Source: a virus. Taken from it: a stretch of 38,369 bases of DNA. A program made the translations under genes and the position numbers. The stretch lies in IMG/VR virus record IMGVR_UViG_3300048589_001602, positions 1 through 38,369 of that record; one strand, 5' to 3'. This document shows, in pieces, positions 1-38,369 of this stretch. The stretch's first letter is position 1. The number at the start of each line of letters is the position of its first letter. Under the pieces are notes generated by a model that saw only the letters and a list, made by a program, of their open reading frames with translations, had not been told where the DNA came from and did no database searches.

Positions 1-921
1 GAAGTTGTTCGAGCAATTCACGCCGAACGTTTCGTACCATTTGATCCAGGCGCGGCGATGCAGACCAATGTCGTTCAGCATGATCGCGAAGTGCTCGGCA
101 TATTCGTCCGGCACGAGCAGCCATAGCGAGCCATCAGGGAGCAGCGTGTCAGTCGCTTTACACAGCCAGTCGTCGCACCATTCCAAATACTGCTGGTCCG
201 GCAACCTGTCTGCCTTCTGTCCGTCGCCATAATCAACACCGATGTTGTACGGCGGGTCAGCAAACACGAGTCGCGCGTTCTCGACCAGCATCAACTCCTC
301 GCAGCAGTCGCCGAGCACCACCTTCCAGTTCGATTGCTTCGCAGGTTGCGACTTGACCTCAGCCGCCTTCTGCTCGAGCTCGCGACGCTTCTGCTCGCGC
401 TTCACTTCCTGCTTGGCCTGCGTGACTTTTAGCTCACCGCTCTTAATCTTCTCGAACGTCTCCGGCGATTCAGCTTTAATCTTCTTGGCGTCGCTAACGT
501 AGCGCGGACTGACGCCGACCTTACTTGCCGCCTTTTCCGATGCCTTGCCTTGCTCCGATAAAGAGGGCATTTGTGCCCTACTTTTCGGCGGCCGCCCCTT
601 GGGTGTGACTTCTGGCTTTTCAAAATGCGGCAGCAGCTCAACCGCCACCGCCGCCTTCTGACTTGGCGTCAGGTGACGACGCTCGCCGTTCAGGGCCCAG
701 ACGTATTCACCAGGCGTTTGGCCCTGGAGGTCGATGTCGACAAACTCCGGCTCGACGCCTGCGATCTTGCACGCCTTGAGCCGGTGCCGTCCGTCGATGA
801 CCTTGCCCTTGAACAGCTCGATGGGAACAAGCAGTCCGTTCTGCTTGATGCTCGCGGCGAGCTCGTTCAGCTCGTCGGCCTGCATCTCCGGCAACGCTTT
901 CGCAGCAGGGTGAATATCCAC
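1..921 (-). CDS. ParB-domain DNA adenine methyltransferase, N-terminal 307 residues (cut by window edge)
   Basis: Reads from a GTG at 921 and stays open to base 1, where the window ends. GGAGG lies six bases upstream of the GTG, which decides the start. Residues about 1-70 form a ParB-type N-terminal domain with the motif GRHRLKAC. A charged helical linker follows (KREQKRRELEQKAAEVK), then the methyltransferase motif IV region ARLVFADPPYNIGVDYG. The DPPY motif lies before the FCGSGTT motif seen in the other copy, an order typical of beta-class N6-adenine or N4-cytosine methyltransferases. It probably methylates phage or host DNA, with the ParB domain aiding DNA contact (inference). If the genome is circular, the gene continues at 37447 and ends at 37055, giving a 437-residue protein. 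The HTH gene at 1084-1323 lies upstream on the same strand. Confidence 0.85.
   Translation of the reverse strand, partial: MDIHPAAKALPEMQADELNELAASIKQNGLLVPIELFKGKVIDGRHRLKACKIAGVEPEFVDIDLQGQTPGEYVWALNGERRHLTPSQKAAVAVELLPHFEKPEVTPKGRPPKSRAQMPSLSEQGKASEKAASKVGVSPRYVSDAKKIKAESPETFEKIKSGELKVTQAKQEVKREQKRRELEQKAAEVKSQPAKQSNWKVVLGDCCEELMLVENARLVFADPPYNIGVDYGDGQKADRLPDQQYLEWCDDWLCKATDTLLPDGSLWLLVPDEYAEHFAIMLNDIGLHRRAWIKWYETFGVNCSNNF
1..921. repeat. Terminal near-repeat, left copy
   Basis: Matches 37448-38369 along its whole length. By eye there are about 34 substitutions and one indel (three G versus four G near 693-695). Most substitutions fall at third codon positions of the methyltransferase frame. 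The repeat begins exactly at base 1, and its partner ends exactly at the last base, as expected for overlapping ends of a circular contig. Identical ends would be expected of a physical terminal repeat, so strain mixture is the simpler explanation. Confidence 0.9.
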
Positions 922-927
922 GCAAAG

Positions 928-949
928 CCTCCGTGCGACGTTCCGTCGC
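928..949 (-). promoter_or_regulatory. Candidate CsrA-binding leader of the methyltransferase gene
   Basis: In the transcript of the minus strand, a 5-bp hairpin GCGAC-GGAAC-GUCGC (949 to 935) presents GGA in its loop. It is followed at once by CACGGAGG (935 to 928), whose GGAGG is the SD of the GTG start at 921. A GGA in a hairpin loop plus a second GGA over the SD is the usual arrangement of CsrA-repressed messages. This phage encodes a CsrA. Binding is inferred. Confidence 0.45.
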
Positions 950-25381: not shown

Positions 25382-25401
25382 TGCCAACTCCTTTGCGTGA
25401 G

Positions 25402-25470
25402 AGGCGGGGGCACGAGTCGAACGTGCAGAGCTCGGCTTATGAGACCGAGAGGAAGCCACTTCTCCCCGCC
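25402..25470 (-). tRNA. tRNA-Met(CAT), contracted D-arm
   Basis: A 7-bp acceptor stem (GGCGGGG with CCCCGCC), anticodon loop CTCATAA (anticodon CAT) on a 5- to 6-bp stem, and a 5-bp T-arm with TTCGACT loop are visible on the minus strand. The gene is only 69 bases. The D-arm region is about three bases shorter than usual and position 8 is A rather than T. No encoded CCA. Possibly functional; a phage translation aid or a remnant. Confidence 0.75.
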
Positions 25471-34400: not shown

Positions 34401-34761
34401 GTCGTTCTTCCAATAGCTGATAGAGTTCGTGAATCCACCGGTCGATCATGCCGTCCAGCGAGTCACGCTGCCACCGCACGATCGCCGCCATTTCCGTGTT
34501 CGTAAGTGCCCGTCCGTTGAAGCTCAACGAACCGACATCGTTAAACCGTGCGTCGCTGAGCAGGTCCGCGGCGGCCTCAATCGTCGCTTCATACCACTCG
34601 TGAAACTCAAGGTCGTCCGGTACCCAAGTCCCTCCGATGTAGCTGCCACCTGGCTGTGAGCAGTCCGCGGCTGGCAAGCAGCTCATCGCACGGCCGCGGT
34701 GCATCGGGGCTTCCTGCTTGCCCAACCACGCAAAGTAGTCCAACGAATCTGAATTGCTCAT
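34303..34761 (-). CDS. Hypothetical protein overlapping recT
   Basis: A 152-residue protein. ATG overlaps the TGA of the HHH gene (ATGA). It is helical and acidic (DYFAWLGKQEAPMHRGRAMS, SLDGMIDRWIHELYQLLEER). Its last 98 bases overlap the start of recT, so co-translation is likely. It sits where an exonuclease or single-strand binding partner might be expected, but no motif supports that. Confidence 0.6.
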   Translation of the reverse strand: MSNSDSLDYFAWLGKQEAPMHRGRAMSCLPAADCSQPGGSYIGGTWVPDDLEFHEWYEATIEAAADLLSDARFNDVGSLSFNGRALTNTEMAAIVRWQRDSLDGMIDRWIHELYQLLEERHGERVTRIDEDQRSSEDSVAVESAQGESGPDI

Positions 34762-35270
34762 CCGTCTCCGTCCTCTCCATCACCGACCGCTTCGTCATCG
34801 ATCAAGTCCGGATTGTTCTCCCAGAATCGATGCATCGAATCCTCGATCTGCTCAGCGGCCTTGGGGCCAATACCTTTGATGTCCGTCAGCACCGCTTCGT
34901 CCGTCCAGCACACCAGATCGCCGACGGTCTCGATTTCGGCGTCCTTGAGTGCCTGCATGATCTTTGGCGGCAAGTCGTCGAGTGCCTGGTGCAGCTCGAT
35001 TTCCTTCCACGACTGCGGCTTTTTCTCGAACAGCGTCAGTTGCGCGTCCGGTCCGCGCTCGATCAGGAACGACAGCTCGGCTGCTGCTTCGTCGTATCGG
35101 TCCTTTGCTGCCTTCGCTGATGCCTTGGCCAGGATCATGGCTTGCTCGAATCGTTTTACGGTCCGCTGCATCGCCTTGATTTCTTCGTAGTGGTCGAGCT
35201 GACGCCTTTGGTCCTGCTCGACGGTTACTGTCTCTCCCTGCGGAGCCTGCGTTGCTGTTGTGTCGTTCAT
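34758..35270 (-). CDS. Coiled-coil protein with helix-hairpin-helix domain
   Basis: A 170-residue protein from ATG 35270. The N-terminal half is a coiled coil (YEEIKAMQRTVKRFEQAMIL). The C-terminal part (about residues 105-145) is a helix-hairpin-helix (LKDAEIETVGDLVCWTDEAV, LTDIKGIGPKAAEQIEDSM), like those of RNA polymerase alpha or DNA repair proteins. A DNA-binding accessory factor in recombination is likely. Confidence 0.7.
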   Translation of the reverse strand: MNDTTATQAPQGETVTVEQDQRRQLDHYEEIKAMQRTVKRFEQAMILAKASAKAAKDRYDEAAAELSFLIERGPDAQLTLFEKKPQSWKEIELHQALDDLPPKIMQALKDAEIETVGDLVCWTDEAVLTDIKGIGPKAAEQIEDSMHRFWENNPDLIDDEAVGDGEDGDG

Positions 35271-35566
35271 TCCCAATCGTCCTCCGGAATATAAATCGAG
35301 CGCACCGTCATCTCACGGATCGCCGGTTCCCGATTGCTCGGTCCGCGGCGAATCTCGTGCGGTTGCACCCCCTCGCAGTTGTCCTTGTCGTCCTCGTGCC
35401 ACAGTTCTTCGCCGCGTTCGACTCGCTTCATCAACGCGACAATCTTCGCCGAGCTGCCGGGCGGGGCCTTCGTCGGCCGCTTGCACTGCCTTGGAGCGAA
35501 TGGCCCCTCGTCACCGGTCGTTGCGATGACATTGAAAACGTTCATCTGCATTGCTGTCTTGCTCAT
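35267..35566 (-). CDS. Small hypothetical protein
   Basis: A 99-residue protein starting directly after the TAA of the upstream membrane protein. It is charged (KIVALMKRVERGEELWHEDD) with a basic patch (PRQCKRPTKAPPG). Not recognised. Confidence 0.6.
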   Translation of the reverse strand: MSKTAMQMNVFNVIATTGDEGPFAPRQCKRPTKAPPGSSAKIVALMKRVERGEELWHEDDKDNCEGVQPHEIRRGPSNREPAIREMTVRSIYIPEDDWE

Positions 35567-35755
35567 TTAATTCTTCTCACAAACGTTGCGGATGATGTCG
35601 CGGCGGATCAGCTGAGCGCACCGCGATTCCCAGTAGTCCGCACTGTCGTTCGCGTCCTGCAGCTCGTTTTGCATGTGCGATACCGTGCGGCTCAAAAACG
35701 CAGCAGCACAGCACGCACCTACAACGCAACCGCAAAAAAACCATTCCAGCATCAT
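35567..35755 (-). CDS. Small membrane protein with coiled tail
   Basis: A 62-residue protein. Residues about 3-25 are a Cys-rich membrane segment (LEWFFCGCVVGACCAAAFLS), then a polar helix. GGAG stands eight bases before the ATG. It follows CsrA by 12 bases. Role unknown. Confidence 0.6.
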   Translation of the reverse strand: MMLEWFFCGCVVGACCAAAFLSRTVSHMQNELQDANDSADYWESRCAQLIRRDIIRNVCEKN

Positions 35756-35767
35756 GGCACAGACTCC

Positions 35768-35974
35768 TTATGCCGCGTCGCCGTCCTTGTTTCGCTCGAT
35801 CGCCGCGTGTACCTCATCGCGGTGCACGGGCAATGACTTGTCGGCGTCAATCCCGATCCGCACCTTACCGCGGCCCTCTTCGACAATCACGATACGAATA
35901 GGACCGACGTGTTTCCAGGTGCCGCTCTCGCCGATGATGATGCTCTGGTTTCTCTTCCGTGATAATACAAGCAT
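35768..35974 (-). CDS. csrA: CsrA-type RNA-binding translational regulator
   Basis: A 68-residue protein. It starts MLVLSRKRNQSIIIGES and continues through RIVIVEEGRGKVRIGIDADK and SLPVHRDEVHAAIERNKDG. The N-terminal Leu/Ser/Arg strand and the VHRDEV motif hold the RNA-contact residues of CsrA dimers. Compared with E. coli CsrA there is an insertion of about eight residues between the second and third strands (ESGTWKHVGP). CsrA binds GGA motifs in hairpin loops and at SD sites. Here its own leader and two others carry such motifs, so it likely autoregulates and controls phage genes (inference). Confidence 0.9.
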   Translation of the reverse strand: MLVLSRKRNQSIIIGESGTWKHVGPIRIVIVEEGRGKVRIGIDADKSLPVHRDEVHAAIERNKDGDAA

Positions 35975-35999
35975 GAGTCAACCCTTCCGTGAAAAGATA
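35975..35999 (-). promoter_or_regulatory. csrA leader with CACGGAAGG at the SD
   Basis: The message leader reads CACGGAAGG with seven bases to the ATG. CACGGA matches the core of CsrA sites and overlaps the SD. No hairpin was found around it. Points to autoregulation (inference). Confidence 0.4.
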
Positions 36000-36005
36000 G
36001 AGAAT

Positions 36006-36356
36006 CTAGTTCAGCTTCTGCATGTTGACCCGAAGGTCTCGTATGCGGGACCACGTTGCCTCCCTCACGTCATGCGAATCGCATAGGATCTCGAGCACCG
36101 CGTGCATGCCCACCAAAACATCGCGGAGAACCACTGAGTCAACCGCGTTTGACGTTGACCTGCGAACGTTGAGCTCAACGCCGCAGACCTTTGCTTGATG
36201 TCGCGCGATCTCGGGAGACACCGGACGGTGAATGACAGTGGACAATACTGCAGCAAGCTCGGCAGCCGTCATTGTCCGCAGTGCATCGCCGCTATTTCGA
36301 ATGGCGTCAAAGCACTGCAGCTTCTCGGCGTCGGTCAGTTTCGTTTGTTTTGGCAT
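36006..36356 (-). CDS. Hypothetical protein with a CsrA-like leader
   Basis: A 116-residue protein. GGAGGG stands four bases before the ATG. It is helical at both ends (KLTDAEKLQCFDAIRNSGDA, LEILCDSHDVREATWSRIRD), with a possible helix-turn-helix-like region (TMTAAELAAVLSTVIHRPVS). Not recognised. Its leader has a hairpin presenting GGA in the loop, so it is a candidate target of the neighbouring CsrA. Confidence 0.65.
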   Translation of the reverse strand: MPKQTKLTDAEKLQCFDAIRNSGDALRTMTAAELAAVLSTVIHRPVSPEIARHQAKVCGVELNVRRSTSNAVDSVVLRDVLVGMHAVLEILCDSHDVREATWSRIRDLRVNMQKLN

Positions 36357-36390
36357 TTAACCCTCCGTGAAAAATGGCCATCCGTGGCCA
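36357..36390 (-). promoter_or_regulatory. Candidate CsrA-binding leader (hairpin plus SD site)
   Basis: On the minus-strand transcript a 5-bp hairpin UGGCC-ACGGAU-GGCCA (36390 to 36375) presents GGA in its 6-base loop, a textbook CsrA site. Six bases further down CACGGAGGG (36369 to 36361) overlaps the SD of the gene starting at 36356. Spacing between the two GGA cores is about 17 bases, suitable for one CsrA dimer. Confidence 0.5.
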
Positions 36391-36440
36391 CGATGCATTC
36401 CGTTAAGGCAGTGACGTGACGAGCTACTAACCTCATCACT

Positions 36441-36531
36441 CACGAGGCAACGCACCTCGTGTACGGTAGCCGCGGCGAGCTTCGTGAAACGGATGTTTGC
36501 TCGCCGCGGCTGTGCGGGGAACACCCCCGCG
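36441..36531 (-). other. Three consecutive hairpins in a non-coding stretch
   Basis: Within the 185-base gap 36357-36541 three perfect stems stand in a row: CACGAGG/CCTCGTG (7 bp, 36441-36461), AGCCGCGGCGAGC/GCTCGCCGCGGCT (13 bp, 36468-36511, 18-base loop) and GCGGGG/CCCCGC (6 bp, 36514-36530). No T-run follows, so it is not a plain terminator. It could be a structured RNA, a regulatory leader or a protein-binding or replication site. Confidence 0.7.
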
Positions 36532-36541
36532 TCCAAGCGGA

Positions 36542-36967
36542 TCAAAGTGTCATGCCTGATTGCAAATATTCTTCAATGGTCATGTCTCGCCGCTGGTTGT
36601 TATGGCCGCGACACTCGATCATCGCATTCTCAACAGTCAACTCGCCGCCCTGGCAACGCGGCACCAAGTGACCGGCTTCGGCTTCATTCGTGCACGGCCC
36701 TTTTCCTCGACCATGCCAAAAACAGCGGTAACCATGCGCAAGCGCGATGTCGGCCTTCACGCGGTTGTTCTTGCCTTTACGTAATAGCGTCTTCAACCGG
36801 ATCACATCATCGACGCTAAACGGAAAGCGAACGTCTTGCGTAATGAGCGTATAGCTATCGGCAACCTTTCGCGCAAACGCGACGCGCTCAGCGTCTAGCA
36901 GCAAATCACCCCAGTTGCCGCCCGCCCTCCGTATTGCTGTCAACAACACCAGTTCGTCGAACGTCAT
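36542..36967 (-). CDS. HNH endonuclease downstream of the methyltransferase
   Basis: A 141-residue protein from ATG 36967 (GTG at 36979 possible). The HNH zinc finger is HGYRCFWHGRGKGPCTNEAE, AGHLVPRCQGGELTVENAMI and ECRGHNNQRRD: Cys pairs, the His of GHLVPR, and the Asn/His. It probably nicks or cuts DNA. Lying right after the methyltransferase, it could form a modification-dependent or restriction-modification-like pair, or act in packaging or mobility. It overlaps the Com-like gene by about 60 bases. Confidence 0.8.
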   Translation of the reverse strand: MTFDELVLLTAIRRAGGNWGDLLLDAERVAFARKVADSYTLITQDVRFPFSVDDVIRLKTLLRKGKNNRVKADIALAHGYRCFWHGRGKGPCTNEAEAGHLVPRCQGGELTVENAMIECRGHNNQRRDMTIEEYLQSGMTL

Positions 36968-37058: not shown

Positions 37059-38369
37059 GACGTCGCTATTCTCACATTCGCCATTTCCCAATATCGTTCC
37101 CCCTTCTCGATGCCGATAAATCGACGGTCCAGCTCTTTCGCGACGACGCCCGTCGTGCCGCTGCCGCAAAACGGATCGACAACCAGATCGCCTGGCTCTG
37201 TCGCGCAGCCGATGATTGGGCGCAGGAGGTCAAGCGGCAGCTGCGTGGGGAAGTCTGGCAAACGTTCGCTGCTGGTACCTGTCAGCCGCGGGATCTGCCA
37301 AACGTCGTCAAGAATCTTTCCGCCGCCAGCAGCACGCTTGTCGTTGTATTTCGTCTGCCGGTCGCTTGCTCGCGTCACGGCGTCCGCATTGAAAACGAAT
37401 CGCTTGGGATCCACGACGTAATAGAACAGGTGTCGCGAAGTGCGATTGAAGTTGTTCGAGCAATTCACGCCGAACGTTTCGTACCATTTGATCCAGGCGC
37501 GGCGATGCAGACCAATGTCGTTCAGCATGATCGCGAAGTGCTCGGCATATTCGTCCGGCACGAGCAGCCATAGTGAGCCATCAGGGAGCAGCGAGTCAGT
37601 CGCTTTACACAGCCAGTCGTCGCACCATTCCAAATACTGCTGGTCCGGCAACCTGTCTGCCTTCTGTCCGTCGCCATAATCAACACCGATGTTGTACGGC
37701 GGGTCAGCAAGCACGAGTCGCGCGTTCTCGACGTGCAGCAACTCCTCGCAGCAGTCGCCCAGCAACACCTTCCAGTTCGATTGCTTCGCAGGTTGCGACT
37801 TGACCTCAGCCGCCTTCTGCTCGAGATCGCGTCGCTTCTGCTCGCGCTTTACTTCCTGCTTGGCCTGCGTGACTTTTAGCTCACCGCTCTTGATCTTCTC
37901 AAACGTCTCTGGCGATTCGGCTTTGATCTTCTTGGCGTCGCTAACATATCGCGGGCTAACGCCGACCTTACTTGCCGCCTTTTCTGATGCCTTGCCTTGC
38001 TCCGATAAAGAGGGCATTTGTGCCCTACTTTTCGGCGGCCGCCCCTTCGGCGTCACTTCTGGCTTTTCAAAGTGCGGAAGCAACTCCACTGCGACCGCCG
38101 CCTTTTGACTTGGTGTCAGGTGACGACGCTCGCCGTTCAGGGGCCCAGACGTATTCACCAGGTGTTTGGCCCTGGAGGTCGATGTCGACAAACTCCGGCT
38201 CGACGCCTGCGATCTTGCACGCCTTGAGCCGGTGCCGTCCGTCGATAACCTTGCCCTTGAACAGCTCGATGGGAACAAGCAGTCCGTTCTGCTTGATGCT
38301 CGCGGCGAGCTCGTTCAGCTCGTCGGCCTGCATCTCCGGCAACGCTTTCGCAGCAGGGTGAATATCCAC
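37055..38369 (-). CDS. ParB-domain DNA methyltransferase, second copy, with a frameshift
   Basis: The frame begins at GTG 38369, the last base of the window, with the same ParB domain as the other copy. A G-run of four instead of three at about 38138-38141 shifts the frame. The methyltransferase part then reads on to TGA 37055 and includes RLVLADPPYNIGVDYG and the C-terminal motif DPFCGSGTTGVVAKELDRRF with GIEKGERYWEM. The motif order (DPPY then FCGSGTT) marks a beta-class methyltransferase. Outside the G-run the protein is nearly identical to the copy at 1-921, with only about six amino-acid changes seen. The frameshift may be an assembly error at the contig end. Confidence 0.8.
37448..38369. 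repeat. Terminal near-repeat, right copy
   Basis: Partner of 1-921. Its end coincides with the window end and with the start codon GTG. The extra base relative to the left copy is the fourth G of the run near 38140. Confidence 0.9.

What the first reader, a model, noticed from the sequence alone, without database searches (positions are those of the whole stretch)
35768..36390. Phage-encoded CsrA with a possible self-contained regulon
A CsrA homologue (35768-35974) sits near three leaders carrying CACGGA over the SD: its own (35975-35999), the upstream gene at 36006-36356, and the methyltransferase gene (928-935). The last two also have a 5-bp hairpin displaying GGA in its loop (36375-36390 and 935-949), placed before the SD site as in CsrA-repressed messages. 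The hairpins and SD motifs are seen directly; CsrA preference for such sites is established; regulation is inference. A phage that uses its own CsrA to time methylation and early genes, or to redirect host translation, would be unusual.
Basis: partly seen in the sequence, partly recalled or inferred. Interest (0 to 1): 0.75.

Follow-up and report, generated by a model that had tools for sequence, protein, structure and literature searches.

The report
Phage CsrA linked to methyltransferase gene
An uncultivated phage carries its own copy of CsrA, a bacterial protein that switches translation off, and in it and its relatives the leader of the neighbouring DNA-methyltransferase gene carries more CsrA-type binding sites than other genes do, so these phages may use a borrowed bacterial switch on their own genes; no binding has been tested.

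Summary
The CsrA gene is real: PF02599, AlphaFold2 pLDDT 89, closest solved folds RsmE and CsrA, RNA-contact residues conserved. On their own they mean little: CACGGA is near chance in the window, and ACGGA is no commoner among csrA SDs than other ANGGA SDs. The orphan gene upstream of csrA (36006-36356) has the best leader: three ACGGA sites 17-18 nt apart, one in a 7-bp hairpin with a CGGA loop. The methyltransferase hairpin is weaker; its predicted fold leaves a GAA triloop. Relatives support the methyltransferase part. csrA is found in 12 of 32 ParB-methyltransferase phage records against 1 of 46 control records, always on the same strand, once with overlapping stop and start codons. ParB-methyltransferase leaders are enriched in multiple ANGGA sites (6 of 11 protein clusters against 8% of background), while 11 control motifs are not enriched. 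'Self-contained' is not supported: the sites are as common in records without csrA, and three sampled planctomycetes (host phylum inferred) have 6-15 csrA copies each. Autoregulation is plausible but weak. Phage csrA genes were already known; the methyltransferase link was not found in the papers searched. Regulation remains inference.

The parts
35768..35974 (-). csrA gene, 68 aa; insertion of about 8 residues after IIIG compared with most phage CsrAs in the alignment
   Evidence: PF02599 58.8 bits vs cut-off 27; phrog_9500; invariant L4, R6, K7, R52 in 21 phage CsrAs; AF2 pLDDT 89.4, top PDB matches RsmE and CsrA
35983..35991 (-). CACGGAAGG over the csrA SD
35956..35961 (-). second CACGGA inside csrA (codons 5-6), 30 nt from the SD site
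36006..36356 (-). ORF upstream of csrA, 116 aa, orphan, mainly helical in a low-confidence model
   Evidence: no PHROG or Pfam match, no IMG/VR relative, no match in 294 planctomycete genomes; AF2 pLDDT 53
36361..36369 (-). CACGGAGGG over the SD of the upstream ORF
36374..36391 (-). hairpin GUGGCCA[CGGA]UGGCCAU, CsrA-type site in the leader of the upstream ORF
36399..36403 (-). third ACGGA in the same leader, 18 nt upstream of the hairpin site
36357..36545 (.). intergenic leader region with five successive hairpins, more stable than all 200 shuffles on either strand
   Evidence: z -3.90 for 36340-36545 minus, -4.35 for 36357-36545 plus
1..921 (-). ParB-N6/N4 methyltransferase gene, GTG start, runs off the contig's left end
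   Evidence: PF01555 2.4e-12; ParB_N below its cut-off; ParB-like PHROGs
927..935 (-). CACGGAGGC over the MT SD
935..949 (-). GCGACG-GAA-CGUCGC hairpin holding ACGGA; poor CsrA presentation
828..847 (-). hairpin CAAGCAG[AACGGA]CUGCUUG in the early MT coding sequence
35756..35774 (-). hairpin GGCAUA[AGGAGUC]UGUGCC holding the SD of the small gene 35567-35755 right after csrA
37448..38369 (-). second copy of the MT stretch (96.2% identical to 1-921), frame-shifted in the ParB part

Best explanation
The phage carries a genuine CsrA. The most likely mechanism is the classical one: a CsrA dimer binds a leader GGA site and bridges to an ANGGA site over the SD, blocking ribosome entry. In this phage the best candidate targets are the orphan gene upstream of csrA and the ParB-methyltransferase gene; in relatives the ParB-methyltransferase leader is the recurrent candidate target and csrA is a frequent neighbour on the same strand. 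Host CsrA may bind the same sites, so the phage protein would add to or replace host control. Shown: the protein family, the sites, the enrichment and the genetic linkage. Inferred: binding, repression, timing and the host phylum.
For: CsrA fold and conserved RNA-contact residues. Upstream ORF leader meets the published CSRA_TARGET rules (ANGGA at the SD, three or more sites, two or more pairs 10-60 nt apart; PMC4066749) with ANGGA sites only, one of 3 of 50 genes; the MT gene meets them only if AGGA counts, one of 9 of 50. csrA in 12/32 ParB-MT records vs 1/46 control MT records. Same strand in 12/12, within 6.2 kb in 11/12; G029 csrA stop overlaps the MT start (TAATGG), G038 gap 214 bp. ParB-MT leaders with two or more ANGGA: 13/27 vs 35/657 other genes in the same contigs (p = 2e-9); after clustering proteins at 65%, 6/11 vs 8% (p = 2e-4); ANGGA upstream of the SD p = 2e-4 unclustered, 0.011 clustered; hairpins p = 0.0055 unclustered, 0.011 clustered; 11 control pentamers p 0.083 or higher. 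In csrA+ phage G024 the only genes with hairpin plus SD site are ParB-MT (GUGC[AUGGAA]GCAC + ACGGAGG) and csrA (GCCGC[ACGGA]GCGGC + ACGGAG). Spacing of 17-18 nt lies in the 10-63 nt range for dual-site bridging (PMC7652899).
Against: No binding data. MT sites do not depend on csrA being in the record. Across csrA phages, ANGGA leader hairpins are not enriched over several control loops (34 vs 33, 33 and 32 of 780). The MT hairpin in the window is not a clean CsrA loop, and the 85-nt leader of the upstream ORF is no more stable than shuffles. An automated family scan with homology-quantile starts showed no MT enrichment. The csrA gene fails CSRA_TARGET. Several test definitions were tried.
Confidence: 0.45

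Rival explanations
1. The phage CsrA mainly acts on host mRNAs, as plasmid RsmQ does, and most GGA in the phage leaders is just SD sequence.
For: RsmQ acts chiefly on the host (PMC9928087); CACGGA and ACGGA SDs are at background; no general leader-hairpin enrichment in csrA phages.
Against: Does not explain the ParB-MT leader enrichment with flat control motifs, the csrA-MT linkage, or the three-site leader of the upstream ORF.
Confidence: 0.3
2. Host CsrA controls the phage ParB-MT leaders; the phage CsrA is a competitor or back-up.
For: Three planctomycete genomes have 6, 9 and 15 csrA matches; MT sites are as common in records without csrA as with it (9/15 vs 6/10; tally).
Against: Does not explain why csrA is frequent and close in ParB-MT phages. 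Records are fragments, so csrA absence is uncertain. The host phylum is inferred; no ParB-MT prophage was found in 294 planctomycete genomes.
Confidence: 0.17
3. The leader hairpin of the upstream ORF is a DNA operator, terminator or processing signal in a structured intergenic region, and its GGA is incidental.
For: TGGCCA is itself a palindrome repeated on both sides of CGGA; the region holds four further hairpins without GGA in the loop.
Against: The loop and its A-U closing pair fit the CsrA consensus, and two further ACGGA lie at 17-18 nt spacing.
Confidence: 0.08

Closest known systems
CsrA/RsmA/RsmE family (PF02599)
   Same: Fold, length, conserved RNA-contact residues; leader sites of the ANGGA type with one over the SD
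   Different: Insertion of about 8 residues after IIIG relative to most aligned phage CsrAs; encoded on a phage; no CsrB-like sponge RNA found by Rfam
csrA alleles in phages (Sobrero and Valverde 2020, PMC7366521)
   Same: csrA on phage genomes (30 of 2517 phages)
   Different: Those listed are mainly proteobacterial; here a divergent csrA in uncultivated phages with a recurrent ParB-methyltransferase neighbour
RsmQ of plasmid pQBR103 (PMC9928087)
   Same: CsrA-family regulator on a mobile element
   Different: RsmQ is reported to act mainly on host mRNAs; here the candidate targets are phage genes
glgC and hcnA leaders repressed by CsrA/RsmE
   Same: Hairpin-loop GGA upstream of a GGA over the SD, spaced for dual-site bridging
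   Different: Regulation not tested here; target genes are phage genes

Membership tests
CsrA/RsmA family | PF02599 match above the curated cut-off | tested here: met
   58.8 bits vs 27
CsrA/RsmA family | Conserved RNA-binding residues (L4, R6, K/R7, R44 of E. coli = R52 here) | tested here: met
   invariant in the 21-sequence alignment
CsrA/RsmA family | CsrA fold | tested here: met
   AF2 pLDDT 89.4; Foldseek best matches are RsmE, CsrA and RsmA, probability 1.00 but E 6e-3 or higher for this small protein
CsrA/RsmA family | Dimer that binds ANGGA RNA | not testable with these tools
   needs biochemistry
CsrA-repressed leader (CSRA_TARGET rules) | ANGGA at SD, 3 or more sites, 2 or more pairs at 10-60 nt: upstream ORF | tested here: met
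   sites -45, -27, -10; 3 of 50 genes pass
CsrA-repressed leader (CSRA_TARGET rules) | same: MT gene | tested here: inconclusive
   passes only if AGGA counts as a site, when 9 of 50 genes pass
CsrA-repressed leader (CSRA_TARGET rules) | same: csrA itself | tested here: not met
CsrA-repressed leader | GGA displayed in a hairpin loop: upstream ORF | tested here: met
   (short fold; competing pairings in the long fold)
CsrA-repressed leader | GGA displayed in a hairpin loop: MT | tested here: not met
   GAA triloop in the predicted fold
Self-contained phage regulon | Sites found only or mainly where the phage has csrA | tested here: not met
   6/10 with csrA vs 9/15 without (tally)

The most novel reading that the evidence does not exclude
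A family of phages, probably infecting Planctomycetota, took a host csrA and placed it beside a ParB-methyltransferase gene whose leader became a CsrA target, giving a phage-borne translational switch that sets when the phage genome is methylated, with a second, phage-specific target gene just upstream of csrA.
Probability: 0.25. Interest if true: 0.75.

Novelty: new variant of a known kind. Interest (0 to 1): 0.5.

Why it matters
CsrA homologues on mobile elements are known, but what they regulate is mostly open; the studied case, RsmQ, is reported to act on the host. A recurrent csrA-methyltransferase pair with CsrA-type sites in the methyltransferase leader would give a specific, testable phage-gene target, and an example of a phage using a bacterial translational repressor on a gene tied to DNA modification.

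Tried and rejected
CACGGA at the SD as evidence by itself: rejected, background level. General enrichment of ANGGA hairpins in leaders of csrA phages: not found. csrA autoregulation as a class: hairpin plus SD 6/61 vs 17/1342 (p = 3e-4), but 6/53 vs 17/355 (p = 0.06) once an ANGGA SD is required, and no hairpin enrichment in the cluster-level scan. A stricter minimum-energy criterion: 2/24 MT and 1/53 csrA leaders vs 7/692 others. Family scan with homology-quantile starts: no MT signal (2, 6 and 1 of 25 clusters); ParB-MTs form only 11 clusters at 65%, so that family is mostly other methyltransferases, and the starts differed; the ParB-motif-anchored starts were used instead, which is a choice of mine. 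CsrB-like sponge RNA: no Rfam match; of the hairpins between 36357 and 36545 only one shows GGA. Upstream-ORF relatives: none in IMG/VR or 294 planctomycete genomes. RecT and the leader DNA as probes for relatives: none. ParB-MT prophages in planctomycetes: only MT-domain matches. One near-identical phage fragment (L003) does not reach this region.

Full report
What is there. The window is an IMG/VR virus record of 38,369 bases, 57.4% GC, with tailed-phage head and tail genes (terminase, portal, major head protein, tape measure) and RecT, RusA and a primosomal protein. Most genes with family matches lie on the minus strand. The ends, 1-921 and 37448-38369, are 96.2% identical, so the ParB-methyltransferase (MT) gene at the left end is the same gene as the one at the right end (frame-shifted in the ParB part), and the order on the minus strand is MT, HNH, orphan ORF, csrA, small gene, and on towards RecT.

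The protein. csrA (35768-35974) matches PF02599 with 58.8 bits against a cut-off of 27 and PHROG 9500. L4, R6, K7 and R52 (R44 of E. coli CsrA) are invariant in 21 aligned phage CsrAs. AlphaFold2 gives pLDDT 89, and the top PDB matches are RsmE and CsrA, including RsmE-RNA complexes (E-values 6e-3 and above, as expected for so small a protein). It has an insertion of about 8 residues after IIIG relative to most of the aligned phage CsrAs. Among the few bacterial relatives found were Planctomycetaceae and Planctomycetales, and one of them (L019) also has a CACGGAGG SD before its csrA. The host phylum remains inferred.

The sites in the window. All three SD-overlapping ACGGA sites exist. ACGGA or CACGGA as such is not unusual. 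The leader of the orphan ORF is the best of them: three ACGGA at spacings of 18 and 17 nt, the middle one in GUGGCCA[CGGA]UGGCCAU. In a scan of 780 leaders it was the only one with three ACGGA in 70 nt. It passes the published CSRA_TARGET rules (PMC4066749) when only ANGGA counts as a site, one of 3 of 50 genes. In the fold of the longer leader other pairings compete and the energy is no lower than in shuffles. The MT leader passes only if AGGA counts, and its hairpin is predicted with a GAA triloop. The csrA leader has one SD site and one site inside the gene, and fails the rules. The intergenic region 36357-36545 is strongly structured on both strands.

Relatives. A CsrA alignment found 57 csrA loci in IMG/VR. 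The ParB-MT found 32 loci: 12 of those 32 records carry csrA above the family cut-off, against 1 of 46 records drawn with other phage methyltransferases (48 searched, two of them ParB-MT relatives without csrA). In all 12, csrA and MT are on the same strand, and in 11 within 6.2 kb. In G029 the csrA stop overlaps the MT start; in G038 the gap is 214 bp, with a small reading frame between them. Phage gene modules cluster, so proximity by itself does not prove a functional link.

Leaders of ParB-MT genes. Against 657 other genes in the same contigs, two or more ANGGA sites occur in 13/27 MT leaders versus 35/657 (p = 2e-9). Starts of six of these leaders were set by hand; a ParB-motif-anchored automatic choice gave the same picture, and with homology-anchored families as background and MT proteins clustered at 65% identity it is 6/11 versus 8% (p = 2e-4). 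ANGGA upstream of the SD: 15/25 versus 44/196 (p = 2e-4), or 7/11 clustered (p = 0.011). Hairpins: 7/25 (p = 0.0055), or 4/11 clustered (p = 0.011), against 7.7% of background. None of 11 control pentamers was enriched (lowest p 0.083). Clear cases are L099, L104 and L128. A family-wide scan with a different start rule did not show this, and a minimum-energy criterion gave 2/24 against 7/692, so the result depends on careful start calls and needs a fresh data set. Several definitions were tried, and p-values should be read with that in mind. The sites do not depend on csrA being in the record: counting an ANGGA between -65 and -16, I find 6 of 10 csrA+ leaders (L227, L231, L235, L238, L241, window; not L229, L233, L234, L239) and 9 of 15 others (tally). 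The records are fragments, so absence of csrA is uncertain.

csrA leaders. Individual phage csrA genes have good sites: L077, an 11- to 12-bp stem with ACGGAGA in the loop; L137, two AGGGAU hairpins plus AUGGAGG; L136/L231, GCCGC[ACGGA]GCGGC plus ACGGAG. As a class the evidence is weak once the strong ANGGA SDs are allowed for.

Reading. The simplest account is classical CsrA repression: a site in the leader tethers the dimer, which bridges to the SD site (PMC7652899). I think it likeliest that the orphan ORF and the MT are targets of CsrA, with phage and host proteins possibly sharing the sites: three planctomycete genomes carry 6, 9 and 15 csrA matches. Phage csrA is not new (PMC7366521). 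I found no report of the csrA-methyltransferase link in the papers searched; most subscription papers are not in that library.

Noticed in passing
window 1-921 and 37448-38369: Imperfect terminal repeat (96.2%): the contig probably closes on itself from two strain variants; the right copy of the MT gene has a frameshift in the ParB part.
   Followed up: partly
G016, G017, G018 (genomes of L019, L024, L027): Three planctomycete genomes have 15, 9 and 6 matches to the CsrA family.
   Followed up: no
window 36357-36545: Five successive hairpins between the HNH gene and the orphan ORF, far more stable than shuffles on both strands; could be an origin, terminator or structured leader.
   Followed up: partly
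window 35756-35774: The SD of the small gene right after csrA lies in a 6-bp hairpin loop with AAGGA. A short, seemingly membrane-type reading frame also follows csrA in G038 (L236); judged by eye, and a scan for such genes after other phage csrAs returned none.
   Followed up: partly
family of L239 (AAA ATPase-like, 301 aa) and family of L056 (308 aa): In the family scan two other families had ANGGA upstream of the SD more often than average: 7/12 clusters (p = 0.016) and 8/14 (p = 0.011); uncorrected for 26 families.
   Followed up: no
L137 (G031 csrA leader): Two AGGGAU-loop hairpins plus AUGGAGG SD before csrA: a good autoregulation candidate.
   Followed up: partly
L104/L231 ParB-MT gene: The reading frame from the ParB start stops after 98 codons although homology continues; frameshift or assembly error.
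   Followed up: no
window 34758-35276: Protein with a helix-hairpin-helix stretch resembling the RNA polymerase alpha C-terminal domain (PF03118, 26.4 bits vs cut-off 23.8).
   Followed up: no
window 25401-25470: A tRNA-Met gene (anticodon CAT) on the minus strand.
   Followed up: no
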